DNA from: J088 sp003695505 [NCBI: Candidatus Dadabacteria bacterium]
GTDB lineage: Bacteria; J088
DNA: 8,855 bases
Reading direction: 5' to 3'
Assembly (NCBI GenBank): GCA_003695505.1
Contig: RFIY01000227.1
Location: forward strand, 1-8,855
Part shown: piece after piece, positions 1 to 8,855 of the stretch
Position numbering within the stretch: position 1 is the stretch's first letter
Layout: each line of letters opens with the position of its first letter
Program-made: the position numbers and the translations under genes
The notes under the pieces: model-generated
The model's database searches: none
What the model saw: only the letters and a program-made list of their open reading frames with translations
What the model was told of the DNA's origin: nothing

Positions 1-37
1 ACGCAACCGAAGTGTTGGCTACGACAAGGATCCTGGA

Positions 38-751
38 TCAGAGATCCGACAGACGCTCGACCGCGCGCCGTCCACGCACGATGTCGAGAATGGCCTCGGC
101 CAGGCGGACATCTTCGCCGATATGACCGAGCGCCTCCAGACCGATCGCTTCGGCGTGGGAGACGGGCCAGAAGTGCAGCAGGCGACGGTTGGGCCCGTTC
201 AGGTTCCGGCCATATACGACAACGTCGATGGTCGCCTGATTCGCGGTACGCAATGTCGCGCAATAAGGGCGGTCGTAACCATCGGGGATCTCGCGTTCGA
301 TCCGTTGACGTGAATCGGGCTCGACAAAGTCCAGACTGTCGCAGCCAAGCATCTGCTCGGGTGGATAGCCGAGCAGACGCGCGGCATTTTCGGTGACAAA
401 GTGCAGCTTCCCACGTCGCGCCACGACCGTCGGGGGCCAGAATTCGTCGACGACGGGGACGCTCGTTCGCACTGGAGTAAATGGTCGGCCTTCACCGGTC
501 AGCAACCATTCCGCGCGCACGATGCGACCATCGGGTGGATCGCGCCGCAAGGTGCGGACGAGCCGGGCGATCTTGTCGGCGCCGGGACTGGCTTCGCCGC
601 GCTCATAAGCCTGTACGACACGCACGCCGACACCCATCCATTCGGCAAGCTCCCGCTGTGAGATGCGGCGTTGGCTGTCGAGCTCGTGGCGGAGGAACCG
701 CAGGCGGTCTCCGATGTGGCGTGTCGCCATGTTCGTTCGTTGTTCCTCCAT
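38..751 (-). CDS. Cro/CI-type (XRE) helix-turn-helix regulator with C-terminal PAS-like domain
   Basis: Likely a cytoplasmic DNA-binding regulator with a sensory domain. Numbered from ATG 751 (237 aa), residues about 14-70 form a Cro/CI-type HTH: recognition region around SQRELAEWMGVGVRVVQAYERG is split here as SQRELAEWMG (31-40) and the following turn and helix ending YERGE. The WLLTGEG stretch (82-88) is typical of the end of XRE domains in phage-type repressors. Residues about 103-200 look like a PAS fold, with an N-A-A-R-L-L-G-Y segment (122-129). No peptidase or membrane segment is seen, so it is not a LexA/CI self-cleaving repressor. ATG 751 has GAGGG six bases upstream. ATG 730 (MATRH) is an alternative, with GGAGG 14 bases away. 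The open frame extends to TTG 799, but that would almost coincide with the predicted transcription start. It is divergent from the hybrid kinase gene. Ligand and targets are unknown. The HTH call is firm, the PAS call moderate. Confidence 0.82.
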   Translation of the reverse strand: MEEQRTNMATRHIGDRLRFLRHELDSQRRISQRELAEWMGVGVRVVQAYERGEASPGADKIARLVRTLRRDPPDGRIVRAEWLLTGEGRPFTPVRTSVPVVDEFWPPTVVARRGKLHFVTENAARLLGYPPEQMLGCDSLDFVEPDSRQRIEREIPDGYDRPYCATLRTANQATIDVVVYGRNLNGPNRRLLHFWPVSHAEAIGLEALGHIGEDVRLAEAILDIVRGRRAVERLSDL

Positions 752-799
752 CCGTGTCCCTCGCAATCCCCGCTGCAGTCGTGCCCTGGATCGACTCAA

Positions 800-815
800 A
801 CGATGTTACAATCGT
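800..815. promoter_or_regulatory. Inverted repeat, possible operator over the HTH-PAS promoter
   Basis: ACGAT-N6-ATCGT is a 5-bp-arm inverted repeat (arms 800-804 and 811-815) that covers the candidate minus-strand -10 box and start site. Cro/CI-type proteins commonly bind dyads of about this size and repress their own promoter. The arms are short, so the call is tentative. Confidence 0.35.
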
Positions 816-839
816 AGCAGGAAGTGACCTTTTTCCCAA
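811..839 (-). promoter_or_regulatory. Candidate sigma-70 promoter of the HTH-PAS gene
   Basis: On the minus strand TTGGGA (839-834) and TACGAT (816-811) are separated by 17 bases. Each hexamer matches the consensus at four of six positions. The predicted start near 804 gives a leader of about 50 bases to ATG 751. This is inference from spacing and sequence only. Confidence 0.35.
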
Positions 840-865
840 GACACTATGTGACGCAGTCTGTGGAC

Positions 866-894
866 TTGACTACCGGTGCAACGTGCGCTATCTT
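866..894 (+). promoter_or_regulatory. Candidate sigma-70 promoter of the hybrid kinase operon
   Basis: TTGACT (866-871) and TATCTT (889-894) are separated by 17 bases. Transcription would begin near 901. If real, it excludes the GTG at 876 as the kinase start, because that codon lies inside the promoter. Confidence 0.35.
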
Positions 895-944
895 GCGTAT
901 TATCGGCCGGCGGTGGGCGGATTAAAGGCCTGGCGAATCAACTC

Positions 945-2771
945 TTGAGTGGCAACCCGACATCGATCTATCTTTTCGAAGCGCCGTCACGCACGGAGCG
1001 GTGGCGTACCCTGCTGGCCTCGTCCGCACTCGATCTTCATCAGGTTGACGACGCGGGCGACCTGCTGCAACTGCTGAAGACGGCCCGAGGCAAATTGTTG
1101 CTGACATCGGCAGCGCGGTTCGAGCGGTTCGCTGCGTCCTGGCGCGGAGCGGTTGGGCCCGTTTCTGTCGTCGTCGTCCTGAAATCCGGTGCCGAACAGC
1201 GCGTCGCGGAGCTGCTCACGGCGGGTGCGACCGTGGTCCTGACAGAAGACGAGTTGAGCGCGGCGCGGCTGATTGAGATGCTGGCGGCGCGACTTCAGGA
1301 GTTGCGCGGGGCGATCAGCGTGCAGCGCGCGCCGGGTGGCCCGGGTTTTGTGACGCTCGACGATGAAGGGCGGGTGCAGCAGATCAATCCGTCCGCGGCG
1401 GAACTGATCGGAGTACCCCCCGAACAGGTCATCGGCCGCTCGTGGCGCGAGATTGCCCGCGGTGATGGGTCCGGACTCAGTTCGACGGCGGCGGGGCGAA
1501 CCTTTCATGAACACCGGGTTCCCGGCTATCGCGGGCGCTTGTTGCGCATTTCACCGCCGGGAGACCAGCTCGCCGCGCTGGGGCAGGCCTTTCCGCAACT
1601 GACACGTCTCAATCGTCTTGCGCTCAGTGGCCGACTGGTCGCAACCGTTCTGCACGACCTGCGCACACCGACGGCCTATGTACGGGCCAACATGGATGCA
1701 TTGCTCGAGACGTTAGCACGCCTCGAGCGGGCCGCACCCGGATCCGCGGAGTGGCAGGAACTGCTGGCCGAAATTCGTGAGCTGGCCGCGGATTCGGGCT
1801 CGGGCGCGGCCCATCTGGCCGAGATCGCTCGACTGCTTGAGCTGGGTACCGGGCAGACTACCGACGATGCGCCACTGGCAGCGGCAGATGGTGTCGCCGA
1901 GCTTGCGGTGCAGATGTTGCGGAAGGAAATCGACTATCGCGCGCAGCTCGAACTCGACTTGCAGCGGGTGCCGCTGGCGAACATACCGCATGATCGACTG
2001 CTGCAGGTGCTGGTGAATGTGCTTCGCAATGCCGTGGATGCGATCGAACCGGGTGATGCGAAAGGTAACAACATCGTCGTCCGCACGATGACCGTGGATC
2101 GGATGGTCGTTGTCGAGGTGCAGGACAGTGGCGCCGGCATTCCCGACGCGATGCGCGGTCGGCTGGGCGAGCCGTTTGCGACAGGAAAGCCGGCCGGGCA
2201 AGGTACCGGACTCGGCCTGTACCTTTGTCAGAAATTTGTCCGGGAAGCGGGCGGTCGAATGTGCTTTCACGATGCGCACCCACGGGGAACGCATGTTCGC
2301 ATCGAGTTGCCCGTCGCCGCCGGAAAGAGCGCGCAGGCAGGATCCGGTCGGAATGAGACGCCCGAGGCCCGGACGCCAGCGCGTCCGCAGCGTCCGGCCC
2401 GCATTCTGGTGGTTGATGACGATCGCCTGACGCGCACCGCGTTCAGCCGGCTGTTGCAGACCGTCCACCGTGTCGACCAGGCCGATTCGGTCGATATGGC
2501 ATTGAATTTGCTGGCCGAGCAGGTGGTAGATGTGATTATCTGTGACCTGATGATGCCGGGCCGCTCCGGTGTCGAGCTCTGGGAGGAGCTGGCGGCAATG
2601 AATCGCCCCGCTGCAGAACGTATTGTTTTCGTGACGGCCGGGATTTATGATCCGATCGTGCGCGCGATGGTCGCGCGCTCCGGCCGACCGCTACTGATCA
2701 AACCGGTCAGTGAGTCTCAGTTGTTCCGTGCAATCGACGATGTCCTTACCGGGGGGCTGGTCGATGGCTGA
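945..2771 (+). CDS. Hybrid sensor histidine kinase (pseudo-receiver, PAS, HisKA, HATPase, receiver)
   Basis: A soluble two-component kinase with no membrane helix. Numbered from TTG 945 (608 aa): residues about 6-120 alternate beta and alpha like a receiver but lack the acidic pocket, phospho-Asp and Lys. About 125-175 is a PAS-like domain (INPSAAELIGVPPEQVIG). The H-box HDLRTP has phospho-acceptor His237. The ATPase has an N-box (VNVLRNAVDAI, 357-367), G1 DSGAGIP (394-400) and G2 GTGLGL (420-425). A proline-rich linker (about 465-485) leads to a complete receiver with D491/D492, phospho-Asp534, Thr564 and Lys586. The stop overlaps the next gene, an NtrC-family regulator, by 8 bp, so the two are translationally coupled and probably partners. 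The position recalls FleS/FlrB-FleR/FlrC pairs, but those kinases lack a C-terminal receiver. The start is uncertain: no good ribosome site precedes TTG 945, and the frame stays open to GTG 876, which lies in a candidate promoter. Confidence 0.85.
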   Translation: MSGNPTSIYLFEAPSRTERWRTLLASSALDLHQVDDAGDLLQLLKTARGKLLLTSAARFERFAASWRGAVGPVSVVVVLKSGAEQRVAELLTAGATVVLTEDELSAARLIEMLAARLQELRGAISVQRAPGGPGFVTLDDEGRVQQINPSAAELIGVPPEQVIGRSWREIARGDGSGLSSTAAGRTFHEHRVPGYRGRLLRISPPGDQLAALGQAFPQLTRLNRLALSGRLVATVLHDLRTPTAYVRANMDALLETLARLERAAPGSAEWQELLAEIRELAADSGSGAAHLAEIARLLELGTGQTTDDAPLAAADGVAELAVQMLRKEIDYRAQLELDLQRVPLANIPHDRLLQVLVNVLRNAVDAIEPGDAKGNNIVVRTMTVDRMVVVEVQDSGAGIPDAMRGRLGEPFATGKPAGQGTGLGLYLCQKFVREAGGRMCFHDAHPRGTHVRIELPVAAGKSAQAGSGRNETPEARTPARPQRPARILVVDDDRLTRTAFSRLLQTVHRVDQADSVDMALNLLAEQVVDVIICDLMMPGRSGVELWEELAAMNRPAAERIVFVTAGIYDPIVRAMVARSGRPLLIKPVSESQLFRAIDDVLTGGLVDG

Positions 2772-4149
2772 GCGGGCGCTGATCATCGACGACGATCCCC
2801 ACGTTCGCAGATCCTTCAGCCGGGTGCTGGGCACGATCGGCATCGAGGCGCAGGGCGCCGAAACGATCGAGACCGGACTCGATGCGCTTCAACAGGCCGG
2901 GGGGGCGTTCGCCCTGGTCCTGCTCGATCATTCCCTGCCAGACGGCAATGGCATCGACGCGCTGCCGCGTCTGCTGGCGATCGATCGGGATCTGCCGGTC
3001 ATCATGGTGACTGGATTCGGTTCCGGAGAGCTGGCCGCACGTGCCCTGAAGCTGGGCGCCGTGGACTTTATCGAGAAGCCGGTCGATGTTCAACGCTTGC
3101 GGCAGATTTGTCAGGCGGCCGTCAGCCGCAGACAACTGAACCGGGATGTACGCGCGGAGGAACCCGACGACGCGCCCGAAATGGTCGTGCGCAGTCCGCG
3201 GATGATCGAGCTGCTCGAACTGATCGACCGGCTGGCGGATCTGGACGTCAACGTGCTGATCTATGGCGAGACCGGGGTCGGCAAGGAACTGGTGGCGCGC
3301 AGGTTGCATGAGCGGTCGAGCCGGCGCAGCCATCCGTTTGTTGCGATCAATTGCGCCGCCATTCCGGCGGAACTTCTCGAAAGCGAACTGTTTGGTCATG
3401 AACGCGGCGCATTTACCAGCGCGGACAGTCGCCACATCGGTAAATTTCAGCAGGCCGGCCGCGGCACGATCTTTCTCGACGAACTCGGTGAGATGCCCGC
3501 CGGACTCCAGGCAAAGCTGCTGCGCGTGATCCAGGATCGTCGGATCCAGCCGCTCGGTTCCGACAAGATCGTCCGCGTCGAGGCGCGGATCGTTTCCGCG
3601 ACCAATCGATCCCTGCTTGATATGGTCGAGAACGGAACATTTCGTGAAGATCTCTATTATCGCCTTTGTCAGTTCAGCGTCGATGTTCCGCCCCTGCGCG
3701 AGCGCCGTGAAGAAATTCCGGAACTGGCGCAGCATGTCCTGCAACAGGTACGACAAACGGGCCTGGAGGTTGCCGGGCTGGCCAATGGGACGCTTGAGTT
3801 CATGCAGCAGTATCACTGGCCAGGCAACATCCGCCAGCTCGAGAACGTGATCCGCCGCGCCGCGATCCTCGCGAATGGTGAACAGATCGAGCTGCGTCAC
3901 TTTCCTGCCGAGGTTCTGCGCGATGCCGACCTCGATGTCGACTTCAGTCCGCCGGAACCCGCCGTCGCCAATGAGGCGCTGATACCGATGTTTCAGACGC
4001 CCGATGACATCCTTTCCCTCGAACACGTCGAGCGGATGGTGATCGATGCTGCGCTGACGGTTTGCGACGGCAACATGTCCGAGGCGGCCAAGCGACTCGG
4101 TATCGGTCGCGCCACGCTGTACCGCAAGGTCACGCCTGCCGACGCCTGA
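2764..4149 (+). CDS. NtrC-family response regulator with variant GAFTSA loop
   Basis: A 461-aa receiver, AAA+ and Fis-type HTH protein, the layout of sigma-54 enhancer-binding activators. Receiver: D9/D10, phospho-Asp55, Thr83, Lys105-Pro106. AAA+ (about 140-375): Walker A GETGVGKE (168-175), Walker B GTIFLDE (234-240), arginine-finger region REDLYYRL (294-301), sensor II WPGNIRQLEN (352-361). The HTH lies at about 436-456 (MSEAAKRLGIGRATLYRK). The sigma-54-contacting loop reads GAFTSA at 215-220, with Ser for the second Gly. All ATPase residues are intact, so the protein probably still hydrolyses ATP. Its coupling to sigma-54 may be altered, or it may recognise sigma-54 in a modified way. 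ATG 2764 lies inside the end of the kinase gene, with a run of six G seven bases upstream. It is probably phosphorylated by that kinase. It is of the FleR/FlrC type by family and neighbourhood, but no orthology is claimed. Confidence 0.9.
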   Translation: MAERALIIDDDPHVRRSFSRVLGTIGIEAQGAETIETGLDALQQAGGAFALVLLDHSLPDGNGIDALPRLLAIDRDLPVIMVTGFGSGELAARALKLGAVDFIEKPVDVQRLRQICQAAVSRRQLNRDVRAEEPDDAPEMVVRSPRMIELLELIDRLADLDVNVLIYGETGVGKELVARRLHERSSRRSHPFVAINCAAIPAELLESELFGHERGAFTSADSRHIGKFQQAGRGTIFLDELGEMPAGLQAKLLRVIQDRRIQPLGSDKIVRVEARIVSATNRSLLDMVENGTFREDLYYRLCQFSVDVPPLRERREEIPELAQHVLQQVRQTGLEVAGLANGTLEFMQQYHWPGNIRQLENVIRRAAILANGEQIELRHFPAEVLRDADLDVDFSPPEPAVANEALIPMFQTPDDILSLEHVERMVIDAALTVCDGNMSEAAKRLGIGRATLYRKVTPADA

Positions 4150-4180
4150 TTTTGCAGGACGCGAATCCGTAATACTCGCG

Positions 4181-4214
4181 CAAAAAGAAAGACGCCGGAC
4201 GCGAGCGCCCGGCG
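4181..4214 (-). terminator. Intrinsic terminator of the motAB operon
   Basis: Read on the minus strand, a 6-bp GC stem CGCCGG/CCGGCG (4214-4209 with 4198-4193, 10-base loop) is followed by a T-rich run TCTTTCTTTTTG (4192-4181). It lies about 105 bases past the motB stop. The plus strand has no T-run here, so it would not stop the converging regulator transcript. Confidence 0.65.
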
Positions 4215-4264
4215 GGAGGAAGGAGAGGTGCCCGGCGCGAATGGCCAGGCGGCAGGAGGTTCCG

Positions 4265-4279
4265 GACCAGGATCTGGTC
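4265..4279. repeat. Short perfect inverted repeat in the convergent gap
   Basis: GACCAG-GAT-CTGGTC is a perfect 6-bp hairpin with a 3-base loop, between motB and its terminator. There is no T-run on either side. It may be a 3' stabilising hairpin. The rest of the 4150-4319 gap holds no gene that I can support; the small frames there have no homologous-looking content. Confidence 0.4.
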
Positions 4280-4319
4280 ACGTGCATATACCAGCAATCT
4301 TCGTGCCAGGACTGCGCGG

Positions 4320-5162
4320 TCAGCCCGCGCCGGGTTCAGGTGCCAGGGTGCCAAGCAGGATCGAAACCCTGCGATTGCGCGGATCCTTCGGGTCGTTGGG
4401 CAACAACGGCCGGCGGTCAGCGTACGCGCGAATTTCGCGAATGCGCTGTTCCGGCAGGCCGCGCGCGAGCAGCATCTCGCGCACGGTTTGCGCCCTGGCA
4501 GAGCTCAGATCCCAGTTGTTCGTGCCGCTGCCAGCGGCGAAGGGTACGCTGTCGGTATGTCCCTCGATCGCAATTGGCCGATCGAGATCGGCGACGGCCG
4601 CGAACACGGTGTCAACCGCGCGTTCCAGCTCAGGCGTCGGCGTCGCGCTGGCGCTGGCGAAAAATGTCCGATCCGCTCGGTCGCTAAGCTCGATGCGCAC
4701 GCCCTCCTCGCTGACACGGATCTTGATCATCTTCGCGATCTCGCGCAATTTGGCATCTTTGCGCAGATGCTTGAGCAGATCTCTCACGGCCTTGAATAGC
4801 TCCGGATCCATCTGGCTGAGCGACCGGGCGAACTGATCGCCAGTCCCCTTGCCCTTTGTATGCGACATCTGGTTCGGGCGTGGCATGCCCTGGAAGACCC
4901 CCGCGCCCATGTTGTTCAGCAACAGGGATGAATTCTGGATGACCGGCACGCCACGTGGATCGGTGAAGTACGCGGCGATGTTGTTTTTGACCTCGGGCGA
5001 TTGACCCATGATCCACAGCACCATGAACAGCGCCATCATCGCGGTCACGAAGTCGGCATAGGCGACTTTCCACGCGCCGCCATGGTGTCCGGCCTTCTTC
5101 TTGACGACCTTCTTGATGATCGGCCGTTTTGCCTCTTCACTGCCTGGCGTCTGATTGCTCAC
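4320..5162 (-). CDS. motB: Flagellar stator protein MotB
   Basis: The peptidoglycan-anchoring half of the proton-driven stator, 280 aa. A short basic cytoplasmic tail (16-32) precedes one transmembrane helix (about 33-53) in which Asp37 of AYADFVTAMMALFMVLW is the proton-binding residue, equivalent to E. coli Asp32. The segment after the helix (about 54-68) corresponds to the plug. Residues about 150-272 are the OmpA/MotB peptidoglycan-binding domain, with GHTDSVPF (201-208), NWDLSSARA (216-224) and an NRRVSI end (263-268). The KVAYADF context is that of H+-type MotB rather than Na+-type PomB. It starts at GTG 5162 with GGAGG (5174-5170) seven bases upstream. It follows motA after a 25-base gap and forms one operon with it. 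Length is close to that of family members. Confidence 0.97.
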   Translation of the reverse strand: MSNQTPGSEEAKRPIIKKVVKKKAGHHGGAWKVAYADFVTAMMALFMVLWIMGQSPEVKNNIAAYFTDPRGVPVIQNSSLLLNNMGAGVFQGMPRPNQMSHTKGKGTGDQFARSLSQMDPELFKAVRDLLKHLRKDAKLREIAKMIKIRVSEEGVRIELSDRADRTFFASASATPTPELERAVDTVFAAVADLDRPIAIEGHTDSVPFAAGSGTNNWDLSSARAQTVREMLLARGLPEQRIREIRAYADRRPLLPNDPKDPRNRRVSILLGTLAPEPGAG

Positions 5163-5187
5163 GATCGAACCTCCGGGTGTTCCGTCG

Positions 5188-6024
5188 TCATCCCCTTAAC
5201 AGTGTTTCCATCTCGGCGAACTTCGGACGCATTTCCTCGGGAATCGAGCGCCGTGCCGCTTCGCAAACCACCAGGGGGTTGGCCTCTTCGGCAATCATCA
5301 TGACGCCCGTCGCCGCGGCACGAAGCAGGGCAATCTCATTGAGCGCGATCCGTTTGAGGATCTGCGCCATTGGCCCGAGAAATCCGTAGGCGAGCAACAC
5401 GCCGAGAAATGTTCCGACCAGGGCGGCGGCGACATGCTCACCGACCGCAGCCGAATCACCGCCGATGGAGTTCATCGTATTGATGATGCCGAGCACGGCC
5501 GCGACGATTCCCAGGCCAGGCAGCGCATCGGCGACGTGTGACAAGGCCTCGGCCGGTTCGACAAGCTCTTCCTCGCGCGTTTCGAGATCCTTGTCCATCA
5601 TCTCGGAGAGTTGAGCCGGATCGGTATCCATCGTCACCATACGCAGGCCATCCGCCAGAACCTCCATGATGCGGTGGTGACTGCCAAGTTTTCCGAAGAT
5701 GGAAGACCCCTCCGGGTTTTCCAGATGTGGTTCGAGCGCCAGCTTGCCTTCCTTGCGCATTGTCGCCGCCAGCTCGTGCAACACCTGTAACGTCGTCAGT
5801 GAGTCGCCGTGTTTGATGGTCTTTCCGGTAATATGGCCCAGCAGCCCCGAGACGATCTCTTTGACGACTGGCATTGGTGTCCCGATGATCAACGAACCGA
5901 CCGCCGCGCCGCCGATGACGATGAATTCCGACGGTTGAAACAGTACGCCGAGAATGCCGTGGGCCATCAGATAACCGGAAATGACGCAGACAATGACAAC
6001 GACCGCGCCGATGACAATGTTCAT
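5188..6024 (-). CDS. motA: Flagellar stator protein MotA
   Basis: The membrane stator subunit that, with MotB, converts proton flow into torque on the rotor. It is 278 aa with four transmembrane segments, at about 2-21, 32-49, 168-188 and 199-220, and the large cytoplasmic loop (50-165) between helices 2 and 3. Arg90 and Glu98 in the loop match the E. coli residues that contact FliG. Pro169 (DALPGLGIVAAVLG) and Pro218 (GFLGP) match the conserved helix 3 and 4 prolines, E. coli Pro173 and Pro222. VGTFLGVLLAYGF (203-215) is a family signature. The start at ATG 6024 is chosen because GGGG lies seven bases upstream and family members begin at this point. The open frame continues another 57 codons, but these do not resemble MotA and run over the promoter. 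It is transcribed with motB and divergent from the regulator at 6305. Confidence 0.97.
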   Translation of the reverse strand: MNIVIGAVVVIVCVISGYLMAHGILGVLFQPSEFIVIGGAAVGSLIIGTPMPVVKEIVSGLLGHITGKTIKHGDSLTTLQVLHELAATMRKEGKLALEPHLENPEGSSIFGKLGSHHRIMEVLADGLRMVTMDTDPAQLSEMMDKDLETREEELVEPAEALSHVADALPGLGIVAAVLGIINTMNSIGGDSAAVGEHVAAALVGTFLGVLLAYGFLGPMAQILKRIALNEIALLRAAATGVMMIAEEANPLVVCEAARRSIPEEMRPKFAEMETLLRG

Positions 6025-6049
6025 AGGCGAACCCCTTTCGTACTGGCAA

Positions 6050-6076
6050 CAATCGGCGGGGCAGGCGATGAAGTTA
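6050..6076 (-). promoter_or_regulatory. motA: Candidate sigma-28 (FliA) promoter of motAB
   Basis: On the minus strand TAAC (6076-6073), 15 bases, then GCCGATTG (6057-6050) resembles the sigma-28 consensus TAAA-N15-GCCGATAA (three of four and six of eight matches, correct spacing). The start would fall near 6043, leaving a leader of about 20 bases that just contains the motA ribosome site. Stator genes are classic sigma-28 targets in enteric bacteria. Confidence 0.5.
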
Positions 6077-6188
6077 AGGCTGCGAGCCACATTCTCTCGT
6101 CGTGGGGGGGCTCTGCCAGCCGCAGCGGCGGCAATCCGCGGCAGACGGCCAGAATTGAGTATCGGTGCAAACGGCGTTCGCAAATCGT

Positions 6189-6217
6189 TTGACATGCGAA
6201 TTCTTGTAACTTATGAT
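6189..6217 (+). promoter_or_regulatory. Near-consensus sigma-70 promoter
   Basis: TTGACA (6189-6194, perfect) and TATGAT (6212-6217, five of six) are separated by exactly 17 bases. The predicted start is near 6224, about 80 bases before the GTG start of the response regulator. The AT-rich surroundings stand out in this GC-rich window. It suggests constitutive, housekeeping-level expression of the regulator. Confidence 0.7.
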
Positions 6218-6293
6218 AGTGTTCAAATAAATGAGTCAGCAGCCGACAGCTACAGCGCAGAAGGCAGGTCGGGGAGAGCTGGCGTTGCATCGG

Positions 6294-6298
6294 GGAGG
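6294..6298 (+). promoter_or_regulatory. Ribosome binding site that fixes the regulator start
   Basis: GGAGG within GGGGAGG, six bases before GTG 6305 and nine before GTG 6308. The upstream open frame back to 5981 is the antisense of motA, so these GTG codons are the likely starts. Confidence 0.7.
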
Positions 6299-6304
6299 TT
6301 GACG

Positions 6305-7735
6305 GTGGTGGAGTACCGAAACATTTTGCTCGTCGTGGATGATGATGCGCGAATGGTGCGCTCGCTGACGCGAGTGCTGAAGCGCGTTTTCGAGCAGCAG
6401 GACGTCGAGATCATCGGCAAGACCGATCCTGCCGACGCCGAGGCGTTCATGGAAGAGCATATGGATCGCCTGGCCGTCGTCTGCCTGGATCATCGTATGC
6501 CCGGGCGCTCAGGCGCCGAGATTCTGCGCGCATTCGAAGGCGCGCCGTTCCAGTTTGTTGTGCTGACGGGCGCCATCGACCAGGAGTTGCTCGATGCGGC
6601 GGAAGGCGGGCATGTGTTCGAGTTCATCGAAAAGGGAGAGCCGACCGTCGCCATCGCCAATGCGATCCGCGCTGCGTTTACCTTCATTCAGCATCAGCAG
6701 ATTGTCGACTACAAGGTCGCCCGCGCCCGCGAACGGCTGATCCACCGCAAACCGAAGCCGCCAAAACCGGATCCGGAAACCGGGGTTGGCGAGTTCCACG
6801 GCATCGTCGGTTCCGGCCCGTGGTTCGAGGAACTCGTGCGAACGATTCAGAAGGTTGCCGCGAGTACCGCGCCGGTCTTTGTCAGCGGAGAAAGCGGTGT
6901 CGGCAAGGAACTGGTTGCGCGCGCGCTTCATGCGGAATCTCCGCGGCGGCGGAATCCCTTCATTGCCGTCAACTGTGCCGCGATTCCCGGCGAGCTGCTC
7001 GAAGTGGAGCTGTTCGGCTACAAGAAGGGCGCATTCACGGGTGCCGACGCCGACAAACAGGGAATGATCGAGGCCGCAAAGGGCGGAACGCTCTTTCTGG
7101 ACGAGATTACCGAGATGCCGGCGCAGGCCCAGTCGAAGCTCCTGCGTTTCCTTCAGGAAGGCACGATACAGCGTGTCGGTGACACGAAGGAGCAGAAGAT
7201 CAACGTTCGCGTCGTGGCGGCGACGAATCGCGACCTTCAGCAGGCGGTCCAGGACGGTCAGTTTCGCGAAGATCTCTACTTCCGGCTCAACGTGATTCCG
7301 GTGATGCTGCCGCCGCTGCGCGAACGACGCGACGATATTCCGGCGCTGATTCAGTTCTACGCGCGGCATTTCGCAGAAACGGAAGGTTTCGACGAGGTGT
7401 CGGTATCGCCGGACGTGATCGAGCAATTGTCAGACTACCGGTGGCCAGGGAATATCCGGGAGCTGCGGAATCTGATGCACCGTCTCGTGCTGTTTTCGGA
7501 CGATGGGGAAATTCGCCCGGAGCATCTTCCGCCGGATCTGCGGGCGACGATCGATGAGGCCGAGACGGAGGCTGCCTGGCGCGACGTCGAGTTGCCGCGA
7601 CTGTTCATCGACGACCGCAGTTCGCTGGAGTGGGCCCTGGAAATCAGCGGCAACGACAAAGAGAAGGCGGCGCGCCTGCTGGGAATCTCACGCGCGACGC
7701 TGTACCGCCGCCTGCGGAAGTTCGACGCCGACTGA
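6305..7735 (+). CDS. NtrC-family sigma-54 activator (response regulator)
   Basis: A 476-aa sigma-54 enhancer-binding activator. Receiver (about 5-125): D12/D13, phospho-Asp62 in CLDHRMPG, Thr88 and Lys110. Lys110 is followed by Gly, not the usual cis-Pro. A basic, proline-rich linker (about 147-158, RKPKPPKPDP) precedes the AAA+ domain: Walker A GESGVGKE (195-202), canonical GAFTGA loop (242-247), Walker B GTLFLDE (261-267), REDLYFRL (321-328), sensor II WPGNIREL (380-387). A Fis-type HTH ends the protein (about 446-471, NDKEKAARLLGISRATLYRRL). All residues needed for phosphorylation, ATP hydrolysis and sigma-54 contact are present. No kinase gene is adjacent; the hybrid kinase at 945-2771 or one elsewhere could serve it. 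It is followed by the sigma-54 promoter of the flgB operon, its likeliest nearby target. FleQ/FlrC-like in role by context, but not assigned. Confidence 0.93.
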   Translation: MVEYRNILLVVDDDARMVRSLTRVLKRVFEQQDVEIIGKTDPADAEAFMEEHMDRLAVVCLDHRMPGRSGAEILRAFEGAPFQFVVLTGAIDQELLDAAEGGHVFEFIEKGEPTVAIANAIRAAFTFIQHQQIVDYKVARARERLIHRKPKPPKPDPETGVGEFHGIVGSGPWFEELVRTIQKVAASTAPVFVSGESGVGKELVARALHAESPRRRNPFIAVNCAAIPGELLEVELFGYKKGAFTGADADKQGMIEAAKGGTLFLDEITEMPAQAQSKLLRFLQEGTIQRVGDTKEQKINVRVVAATNRDLQQAVQDGQFREDLYFRLNVIPVMLPPLRERRDDIPALIQFYARHFAETEGFDEVSVSPDVIEQLSDYRWPGNIRELRNLMHRLVLFSDDGEIRPEHLPPDLRATIDEAETEAAWRDVELPRLFIDDRSSLEWALEISGNDKEKAARLLGISRATLYRRLRKFDAD

Positions 7736-7739
7736 TTCT

Positions 7740-7771
7740 GTCTCAGTCTCACGGTGAGACGACCGTGAGAC
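7740..7771. repeat. Cluster of four TGAGAC half-sites (two dyads), possible enhancer or hairpin
   Basis: In 32 bases there are GTCTCA (7740-7745), GTCTCA (7746-7751), TGAGAC (7755-7760) and TGAGAC (7766-7771). They form a tight hairpin, GTCTCA-CGG-TGAGAC, and a longer perfect 10-bp inverted repeat (7746-7755 with 7762-7771, 6-base loop). The cluster starts five bases after the regulator stop and has no T-run, so it is a poor intrinsic terminator. Its centre is about 205 bases upstream of the predicted sigma-54 start, a normal distance for an activator enhancer. Confidence 0.6.
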
Positions 7772-7935
7772 GCCTGCGGGCATCGCGGACATCATTTCTA
7801 TCGGCTCGAAATCGCGACAGTTTACGTCTTTCGTCCATGTGCGTCGCGTGTCTCGTGTCCGGTGGGTGACGCGCGGATCGCCATGCGCTGGCATTGCGCG
7901 GCATCTTCCTGTCATGACGCGGCTTGCCACCAATC

Positions 7936-7951
7936 TGGCACGTTCCTTGCA
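7936..7951 (+). promoter_or_regulatory. Sigma-54 (-24/-12) promoter of the flgB operon
   Basis: TGGCAC-N5-TTGCA with GG at 7937-7938 and GC at 7949-7950, ten bases between them, matches the sigma-54 consensus TGGCACG-N4-TTGCW fully in both elements. The predicted start is about 7962. It stands between a sigma-54 activator gene and a rod-protein operon. The remainder of the 7736-7965 gap holds no supported gene; a GTCATGAC palindrome occurs at 7913-7920. Confidence 0.88.
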
Positions 7952-7965
7952 GCAGTCGTCGCGCA

Positions 7966-8463
7966 ATGAATACGCGGACGCCAGAACCGACCCCATCCTC
8001 AGCCGAGCAAACACGTTCGCGCACCGTCGTCGGCACGATGTGGCAGCAGGCATACCACCAGGCTGCGCGCGGTCGGCTTGCCAGTGCGCTGTGCGTCGCT
8101 GGTGAAGCAGCGCTGCGACGTCAGATCCAGGAACAGCGCGAAAGGGTCGCCCAACTGCGCGAGCAGGCACAACAGGCCGTTCACGAACAGCAGACGCACT
8201 GGCTTGCCGAGGCGCAGAAGCTGTTTATCGACGGTGCGGCGCATGTGCTGGCGCTCGATGATCCGCGCATGATCGAACCGGCGATTCGCCCACTTCTGCC
8301 GACGGCCGCGGATGCGCTGGCGATGGCGGGTCGTGAGACCGGAGAGATCTCGGAGCCGGCGCTGGCGGAGGTTGCTGTTCGTCATACGATGACCGCGATC
8401 GTCGACGTTCTGCCGTCGTTGCTCGAAGCCGATGAACAGTACCTGGAGGCGCGAGGTGCCTGA
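7966..8463 (+). CDS. Unrecognised coiled-coil protein, first gene of the flgB operon
   Basis: Function unknown. From ATG 7966 it is 165 aa: a polar Thr/Pro/Ser-rich start (1-24), an Arg/Gln/Glu-rich probable coiled coil (about 47-80, with QIQEQRERVAQLREQAQQ at 53-70), then a mostly helical acidic and Leu/Ala-rich C-terminal half (85-165). There is no signal peptide, membrane segment or catalytic motif. The Gln/Glu-rich coil followed by a helical domain is loosely like FliH/YscL or a flagellar chaperone, but none of their signatures is seen, so I do not assign it. The sigma-54 start near 7962 leaves only about four leader bases before ATG 7966, which would make the message nearly leaderless. 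ATG 8038 (141 aa) is the alternative, also without a clear ribosome site. The end overlaps flgB by 8 bp, pointing to translational coupling and a flagellar role. Confidence 0.7.
   Translation: MNTRTPEPTPSSAEQTRSRTVVGTMWQQAYHQAARGRLASALCVAGEAALRRQIQEQRERVAQLREQAQQAVHEQQTHWLAEAQKLFIDGAAHVLALDDPRMIEPAIRPLLPTAADALAMAGRETGEISEPALAEVAVRHTMTAIVDVLPSLLEADEQYLEARGA
8445..8449 (+). promoter_or_regulatory. flgB: Ribosome binding site that fixes the flgB start
   Basis: GGAGG six bases before GTG 8456, inside the end of the preceding gene. It favours GTG 8456 over the in-frame ATG 8432, which has no such site. Confidence 0.65.
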
Positions 8464-8851
8464 GGCGATCACAGGCCGCAGTGGACTCGATGCACTGCTG
8501 GAGCAGGCGCGTACGCACCTGGATCACCAGCGTTTGCGACAGCGGGTTCGCCTGGCGAATATCGCGAACGCGGATACGCCCGGTTACCGCGCGCGAGAGG
8601 TGATCGAATCGCAAATCGCCAATGACTCCGCATTGACGCGAACCGAGCGTGGGCATCTCGGGGGCGAACCGCTGAGCGCGCTGACGATCATCGAGCGATC
8701 CGATGGCCAGGCGGACGCCAGCGGTAACAACGTCGAGCTGGACGAAGAACTGGCCGGTCTCGCAGAAGTCGCGCTCGACATTCGCGTGACAACGAGATCG
8801 TTGACCAATGTACTGGCGCTCTATCGCGCTGCAGCAACGGAGGTGCGTTGA
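8456..8851 (+). CDS. flgB: Flagellar basal-body rod protein FlgB
   Basis: A proximal rod subunit, exported by the flagellar type III apparatus and placed between the MS ring and the distal rod. It is 131 aa, a normal length for FlgB. The rod-family N-terminal signature is ANIANADTPGYRARE (34-48), preceded by an amphipathic helix (11-33). NNVELDEELAGLAEVAL (91-107) is the typical FlgB C-terminal block, ending in TTRSLTNVLALYRAA. The central part is short and variable, as in the family. Start GTG 8456 overlaps the stop of the preceding gene (TGA 8461-8463). The stop TGA (8849-8851) overlaps an ATG by one base. Expression is probably from the sigma-54 promoter at 7936. Confidence 0.96.
   Translation: MPEAITGRSGLDALLEQARTHLDHQRLRQRVRLANIANADTPGYRAREVIESQIANDSALTRTERGHLGGEPLSALTIIERSDGQADASGNNVELDEELAGLAEVALDIRVTTRSLTNVLALYRAAATEVR
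8839..8843 (+). promoter_or_regulatory. Ribosome binding site of the gene after flgB
   Basis: GGAGG seven bases before ATG 8851. It lies within the last codons of flgB and supports a real start at the window edge. Confidence 0.6.
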
Positions 8852-8855
8852 TGGA
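8851..8855 (+). CDS. flgC: Start of next gene, probably flgC (partial, cut by window end)
   Basis: Only ATGGA is present, so nothing can be read from the protein. The ATG overlaps the flgB stop (TGATG) and has a GGAGG at ideal spacing. The name is inferred solely from the near-universal flgB-flgC order. Confidence 0.5.

What the first reader, a model, noticed from the sequence alone, without database searches (positions are those of the whole stretch)
7966..8463. Unrecognised coiled-coil protein heading the rod operon
flgB is usually preceded by nothing or by known flagellar genes. Here a 141-165-aa protein I cannot assign is the first gene under the sigma-54 promoter and overlaps flgB by 8 bp. 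The tight coupling suggests a role tied to rod assembly or export, for example an export chaperone or a FliH-like ATPase partner. It is the best candidate here for an undescribed flagellar component.
Basis: inference. Interest (0 to 1): 0.6.

Follow-up and report, generated by a model that had tools for sequence, protein, structure and literature searches.

The report
Orphan helical gene before flgB
A small gene of unknown family sits at the head of a flagellum-building operon in a little-known bacterial lineage; it looks like a real gene and a plausible helper of flagellum assembly, but nothing found here shows what it does.

Summary
The ORF is real: 7966-8463 (+), 165 aa (141 aa from the second ATG, 8038). 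It overlaps flgB (GTG 8456) by 8 bp and lies just 3' of an exact sigma-54 consensus (7936-7950). Its codon usage matches the genome's flagellar genes. No convincing relative was found in Pfam, NCBIfam, PHROGs, PDB sequences, plasmids, IMG/VR, GTDB species contigs (close relatives only) or several hundred whole genomes; but this genome is the only held member of its phylum, so orphan status is partly a sampling effect. The protein is predicted all-helical, with low confidence in its C-terminal half; the long helix shows no heptad periodicity above shuffles, so 'coiled coil' is unproven. FliH was tested and not supported: the score is at shuffle level, and the fliG-fliH-fliI stretch seems missing from this incomplete bin. 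FliJ and FlgN gave nothing that held up. The 'tight coupling' argument is weak: 14 of 18 other adjacent flagellar gene pairs here overlap too. Best reading: a lineage-restricted accessory gene of the rod/export operon, probably a small cytosolic helper of early basal-body assembly or export. Function is inferred from position only.

The parts
7966..8463 (+). orphan gene X (P0001), 165 aa plus stop; predicted all-helical
   Evidence: open frame; codon score +0.20 nats/codon; no family
8038..8463 (+). shorter form of X from the second in-frame ATG, 141 aa
   Evidence: in-frame ATG; codon signal is weak before about 8095
7936..7950 (+). sigma-54-type promoter match TGGCACG-N4-TTGC
   Evidence: exact match; expectation 0.01 per window
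8456..8851 (+). flgB, proximal rod protein, GTG start
   Evidence: TIGR01396 E 9.9e-14, 51.7 bits against a cut-off of 59.05; Flg_bb_rod over its gathering score
8456..8463 (+). 8-bp overlap of X and flgB, with TGGAGG just 5' of the flgB start
8851..8855 (+). probable flgC start (ATGGA) at the contig end, overlapping the flgB stop by 1 base
   Evidence: sequence; overlap counted; identity as flgC inferred from gene order in other loci
5981..7735 (+). sigma-54-dependent response regulator upstream of the operon (open frame; true start uncertain)
   Evidence: Sigma54_activat E 5.2e-72, Response_reg, HTH_8

Best explanation
X is a genuine, lineage-restricted gene that forms the first cistron of the early flagellar operon (flgB, probably flgC-fliE... 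after it), transcribed from a sigma-54 promoter probably worked by one of the neighbouring sigma-54 activators, and translated in tandem with flgB. Its product is a small, acidic (net -7 over residues 26-165), all-helical, probably cytosolic protein without a recognised domain. Most likely mechanism, inferred from position and helical character alone: a soluble accessory factor of early basal-body assembly that binds an early substrate or the export-ATPase/gate complex, as FliT, FlgN or FliJ do for other steps. Shown: gene, overlap, promoter match, lack of relatives in the collections searched. Inferred: co-transcription, cytosolic location, any binding partner.
For: Codon usage in the range of the genome's flagellar genes. 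Exact sigma-54 site ending 15 bases before the first ATG. Overlap with flgB, and a flgB-flgC overlap continuing the chain. Other genes of the window include two sigma-54 response regulators and motA/motB. Other bin contigs carry flgE'-fliL-M-N-P-Q-R-flhB-flhA-flhF' and fliA-flgF-G-A-H-I-J-M-K (gene names by my reading; FlhA confirmed). In L032, L044 and L064 a sigma-54 activator gene (by my reading) abuts flgB, and L012 looks the same from its first 245 bases, with no gene between: X is an extra gene in a recurrent arrangement. Models all-helical.
Against: No direct evidence of function. Overlap is the rule in this genome (14 of 18 other pairs), so position says little about a rod-specific role. 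No homologue to show that the gene is conserved or kept with flgB; one sequence only. The start region lacks a clear ribosome-binding site and codon signal. Structure comparison gave no significant match (best Foldseek E 2.0 and 4.9).
Confidence: 0.42

Rival explanations
1. X is a known flagellar helper (FliJ, FlgN, FliT or similar) that has diverged beyond sequence recognition in this deep lineage and has moved to the head of the operon.
For: Such genes can drift far: H. pylori HP0256 (142 aa, proposed FliJ) shares 17% identity with Salmonella FliJ and was missed by full-length searches (PMC2864241 passages). No FlgN over cut-off in the bin, and flgM abuts flgK with no gene between. The best of 3551 ORFs in the 80 loci for P0001 is a FlgN-family row, L046, at E 0.0041, 12.7 bits with L046 as query, reached by 0 of 994 shuffles. 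A Yersinia flagellar protein (3nkz; FliT by recall) is the third row of one structural list, Z 7.5, rmsd 5.2, 87 residues.
Against: No profile match to any of them (at E 1; at E 10, though HMMER's filters drop most rows above 0.1). The L046 match is private to that row: the next FlgN row scores 1.7 bits, the 58-row FlgN profile -0.5 bits (674 of 1000 shuffles as high) and a 15-row subgroup around L046 0.4 bits (754 of 1000), or 3.4 bits without L046 (159 of 1000). FliJ: 402 of 1000 (weak profile). The 3nkz row is tied with unrelated helical proteins, at a Z that the tool calls common for helical models. The bin is 84.5% complete, so missing genes mean little.
Confidence: 0.25
2. X is a regulatory protein of the adjacent sigma-54 activator or of the flagellar programme, placed in the operon as a feedback element.
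For: It lies between a sigma-54 response regulator (5981-7735) and flgB, under a sigma-54 promoter match.
Against: No HTH, receiver or other regulatory domain; no comparable gene between activator and flgB in L012, L032, L044 or L064.
Confidence: 0.13
3. X is a leader cistron whose product matters little; its translation sets the level of flgB through coupling.
For: Overlap with the flgB start; no conservation found in any collection searched.
Against: flgB has its own Shine-Dalgarno-like site; X has a long, flagellar-gene-like coding sequence.
Confidence: 0.12
4. X is a spurious ORF in GC-rich DNA and the operon has a 500-base leader.
For: GC 63% over the window and two other contigs; antisense frames of similar length are open; no relatives; weak start region.
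Against: Codon score in the range of real flagellar genes, antisense frame lower; G+C by codon position 0.77/0.49/0.69, close to flgB 0.73/0.48/0.69.
Confidence: 0.08

Closest known systems
FliH (PF02108), regulator of the export ATPase FliI
   Same: helical N-terminal part (recalled for FliH); flagellar operon
   Different: no sequence similarity above shuffles; no strands predicted; FliH sits between fliG and fliI in L012, L032, L044; X is 165 aa, those FliH are 242-258 aa
FliJ, escort/ATPase stalk protein
   Same: size (Salmonella FliJ 147 aa), helical, little sequence conservation
   Different: follows fliI in L012 and L032; no profile match; model is one long helix plus three shorter ones, not a two-helix hairpin (FliJ fold recalled)
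FlgN / FliT / FliS export chaperones
   Same: small, helical, cytosolic (recalled)
   Different: no family match (FlgN; one private FlgN-row match); their genes mostly lie with late-substrate genes (recalled), X lies with the early rod gene
activator-flgB junction in L012, L032, L044, L064
   Same: sigma-54 activator gene followed by flgB (my reading)
   Different: no gene between the two there; here X is between

Membership tests
FliH (PF02108) | profile match | tested here: not met
   no Pfam row; no match in the own genome at E 10 (where the model also missed Caulobacter among its named controls, so it is not fully sensitive); 1.6 bits with 286 of 1000 shuffles as high on an 11-row profile (L012 twice) whose members score 70-149 bits when six were left out in turn
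FliH (PF02108) | mixed alpha/beta C-terminal domain (recalled) | tested here: inconclusive
   model has no strand, but pLDDT over 121-165 is 57-72 by block
FliH (PF02108) | binds and regulates FliI | not testable with these tools
   needs protein; FliI not in the bin over cut-off
FliJ | profile match | tested here: inconclusive
   no Pfam/NCBIfam row; own profile of 9 rows, some cut by locus ends and two (L024, L035) probably wrong frames; left out in turn the seven plausible rows score 5-22 bits and those two 3.3 and -3.2; P0001 1.4 bits, 402 of 1000 shuffles as high
FliJ | antiparallel helical hairpin (recalled) | tested here: inconclusive
   single-sequence model, pTM 0.44
FlgN (PF05130) | profile match | tested here: not met
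   no Pfam row; 58-row profile -0.5 bits, 674 of 1000 shuffles as high; ten rows left out in turn score 87-172 bits, one fragment 4.9. One row, L046, matches P0001 on its own (E 0.0041), not shared by the family
FliT | profile match and helical-bundle fold | tested here: inconclusive
   no Pfam row; 3nkz Z 7.5, rmsd 5.2, 87 aligned, tied with unrelated rows
any export chaperone | binds an export substrate and FlhA | not testable with these tools
   needs a binding assay

The most novel reading that the evidence does not exclude
X is a dedicated chaperone or targeting factor for early rod substrates (FlgB and neighbours), a step that in the current Salmonella model is held to need only an N-terminal signal and no chaperone.
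Probability: 0.08. Interest if true: 0.65.

Novelty: new variant of a known kind. Interest (0 to 1): 0.28.

Why it matters
If the gene is flagellar, it adds a component at the earliest step of rod building in a lineage far from the models. A current model for Salmonella holds that early rod-hook substrates need an N-terminal signal while late ones also need a chaperone (PMC9307174, introduction passages); an older abstract speaks of FlgN and FliT as chaperones for components of hook, rod and filament (PMC2864241). A rod-linked helper would test how general the current model is. As it stands the finding is an orphan ORF with a suggestive position.

Tried and rejected
FliH: rejected on profile score and on gene order. 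An apparent resemblance by eye between residues 78-118 and FliH helices around the 'DP' turn did not survive: the profile does not align there and shuffles score as well. Absence of FliH as a sign of replacement: rejected, because FliG_C and FliI (over cut-off) are missing too; the two sub-cut-off FliI matches (190.9 and 94.1 bits) are probably other rotary-ATPase-like genes, not tested. By gene order the missing stretch would fall between C296 and C140.

Homologue searches that gave nothing convincing: IMG/VR and GTDB species contigs, both by short exact peptide seeds, close relatives only; plasmids; PDB sequences; PHROGs (best E 0.71); 59 and 386 domain-wide genomes, the own one included in both, overlapping sets; 395 genomes of the phylum of L012's genome (one row at 4.2e-4, in a protein that by my reading is trypsin/TPR-like; about chance for 395 genomes). 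Bcl-2 at E 0.06 is below its cut-off and taken as chance. Upstream ORFs: one search looked at 41 of the 80 fetched loci (the 39 left out are all Enterobacterales or Cupriavidus by title) and had 40 plus-strand ORFs from 27 of them; best E 0.82. One search then searched all 3551 closed ORFs of 70 aa or more in all 80 loci: 0 at E 0.001, 5 at E 1, the best a FlgN-family row of L046 (E 0.0041), in its usual place and not before flgB; followed and judged chance, because it is not shared by the other FlgN rows.

Structure: Foldseek of both models gave no E under 2. In the VIA lists 3nkz (FliT by recall) appears for the long form (Z 7.5), and chains of the FliPQR export gate, 6s3r, 6s3l and 8z5s (FliQ by recall), are rows 1, 2 and 4 for the short form (Z 6.3-6.7 over 69-70 residues of the low-confidence part). 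Both lie inside the range that the tool calls common for helical models and are not used as evidence. No row shown is titled FliH, FliJ, FlgN or FliS, which excludes nothing.

Literature: five searches; no listed title or abstract start concerns an extra gene at this place. Two papers were seen only as term passages (PMC9307174, PMC2864241), the rest only as listings. The library lacks most subscription journals.

Full report
The window is the whole of contig C296 of a 2.83-Mb, 395-contig bin, estimated 84.5% complete. It holds an HTH gene (38-799, -; PAS matches only below cut-off), a hybrid histidine kinase (876-2771), a sigma-54 response regulator (ORF 2710-4149), motB (4320-5162, -), motA (within 5188-6195, -), a second sigma-54 response regulator (ORF 5981-7735), the gene in question and flgB. 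The genome is the only held member of its phylum. Its FlhA matches 23 of 24 named genomes searched, at 42% identity or less for near-full-length matches; one genome had no match, and a 185-residue fragment in one genome reached 61%.

Observation. The ORF is at 7966-8463, 165 aa, or 141 aa from ATG 8038; it overlaps flgB by 8 bp. The exact sigma-54 pattern at 7936-7950 is unlikely by chance (two in the window, mean 0.01 in 200 shuffles); use of the site is not shown. A codon model trained on 23 genes of the same genome (flagellar, motor and regulator genes) gives the ORF +0.20 nats per codon, flgB +0.22, the training genes +0.09 to +0.41 (scored on themselves), four other frames of the ORF -0.33 to -0.44 and the codon-aligned antisense frame +0.08. 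So it is very probably a gene, but the first 40 residues carry little codon signal, and neither start has a good ribosome site.

Relatives. None was found in the collections tried, apart from one chance-level row and one private match to a FlgN row, below. The lineage is poorly sampled, and the searches had single-sequence sensitivity, so this shows 'no close relative held', not 'unique'.

Surroundings. None of the ORFs examined before flgB resembles X (40 ORFs from 27 of 41 loci; no ORF of 3551 in 80 loci at E 0.001). In L032, L044 and L064 a sigma-54 activator gene (my reading of the translations) abuts or overlaps flgB, and L012 appears the same from its first 245 bases, read by eye. X therefore lies inside an arrangement that elsewhere has no gene between. 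Contig C140 starts inside flgE and runs to flhF; C6 holds fliA-flgF-G-A-H-I-J-M-K (gene names by my reading). FliG_C and FliH give no match and FliI none over cut-off. In L012, L032 and L044 the order is flgB-flgC-fliE-fliF-fliG-fliH-fliI, followed by fliJ in L012 and L032, while L044 ends after fliI (names by reading, FliH grouped by profile), so the missing piece is most simply one or more lost contigs.

FliH test. A profile from 11 rows of FliH in the fetched loci (L012 twice) gives P0001 1.6 bits; 286 of 1000 local shuffles and the reversed sequence (1.7) do as well, while six true members left out in turn score 70-149. An earlier control (L044 FliH against the profile) was not independent, as L044 was in it. 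hhalign agrees (probability 0.5%).

FlgN and FliJ tests. FlgN: 58 rows, -0.5 bits, 674 of 1000 shuffles as high; of ten rows left out in turn nine score 87-172 bits and one fragment 4.9. Against this, one FlgN row (L046) is the best of 3551 ORFs for P0001, E 0.0041, and 0 of 994 shuffles reach its 12.7 bits; over the best of all FlgN rows 5 of 1000 shuffles do. The other FlgN rows score 1.7 bits or less, and a subgroup profile of 15 rows around L046 gives 0.4 bits (754 of 1000 shuffles as high), 3.4 without L046 (159 of 1000). I read this as chance similarity between two helical, Ala/Gln/Glu-rich stretches, but it keeps FlgN as a lead. FliJ: weak profile, 402 of 1000.

Structure. Two single-sequence models, 165 and 141 aa, are all-helical with mean pLDDT 77.0 and 75.3 and pTM 0.44 and 0.38. 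The N-terminal helix is confident, the C-terminal half is not. No significant structural relative.

Coupling. Among 19 adjacent pairs counted on three contigs, 15 overlap, X-flgB included (14 of 18 without it). The overlap fits X into the operon's translational chain; it does not single out a rod function.

Mechanism. The best-supported reading is an accessory, helical, cytosolic factor made together with the first rod and export parts and acting on an early substrate or the export complex. The first clause (gene, operon head) rests on sequence; the rest is inference. Known helpers of this size mostly act on late substrates (recalled), and a current Salmonella model assigns early substrates only an N-terminal signal (PMC9307174, passages), though an abstract of 2010 credits FlgN and FliT with rod and hook components too (PMC2864241). 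A diverged FliJ, FlgN or FliT is the main rival; the proposed H. pylori FliJ shows how far such genes drift (passages).

Verdict. Very probably a real orphan gene in an informative position, in a lineage with one sampled genome. Interesting as a lead, not yet evidence for a new flagellar component.

Noticed in passing
window 4294-4308 (-): A second exact sigma-54 consensus (TGGCACGAAGATTGC) lies just past the motB stop and points into the 3' end of the response regulator on the other strand; it could drive an antisense or small RNA. Rfam has no match at gathering score in the window.
   Followed up: partly
window 1-8855 (G000): The genome is the only held member of its phylum; near-full-length FlhA at most 42% identical to 23 of 24 named genomes, none in the other.
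   Followed up: partly
L090 4700-6671: A flgJ-like gene, flgM and flgK (names by reading) follow each other with 4-base overlaps and no flgN between; no FlgN over cut-off in the bin.
   Followed up: partly
L090 6815-8422 (-): A glycoside-hydrolase-like gene (by eye, not profiled) converges on flgK; its 5' end runs off the contig.
   Followed up: no
window 876-4149: Hybrid histidine kinase with its own receiver domain, followed by a sigma-54 response regulator; a second such regulator stands at 5981-7735. Which one serves the flgB promoter is unknown.
   Followed up: no
L046 4150-4632 (-): This Burkholderiaceae FlgN-family ORF gives the best score of 3551 ORFs to X (E 0.0041) although its family does not match.
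   Followed up: yes
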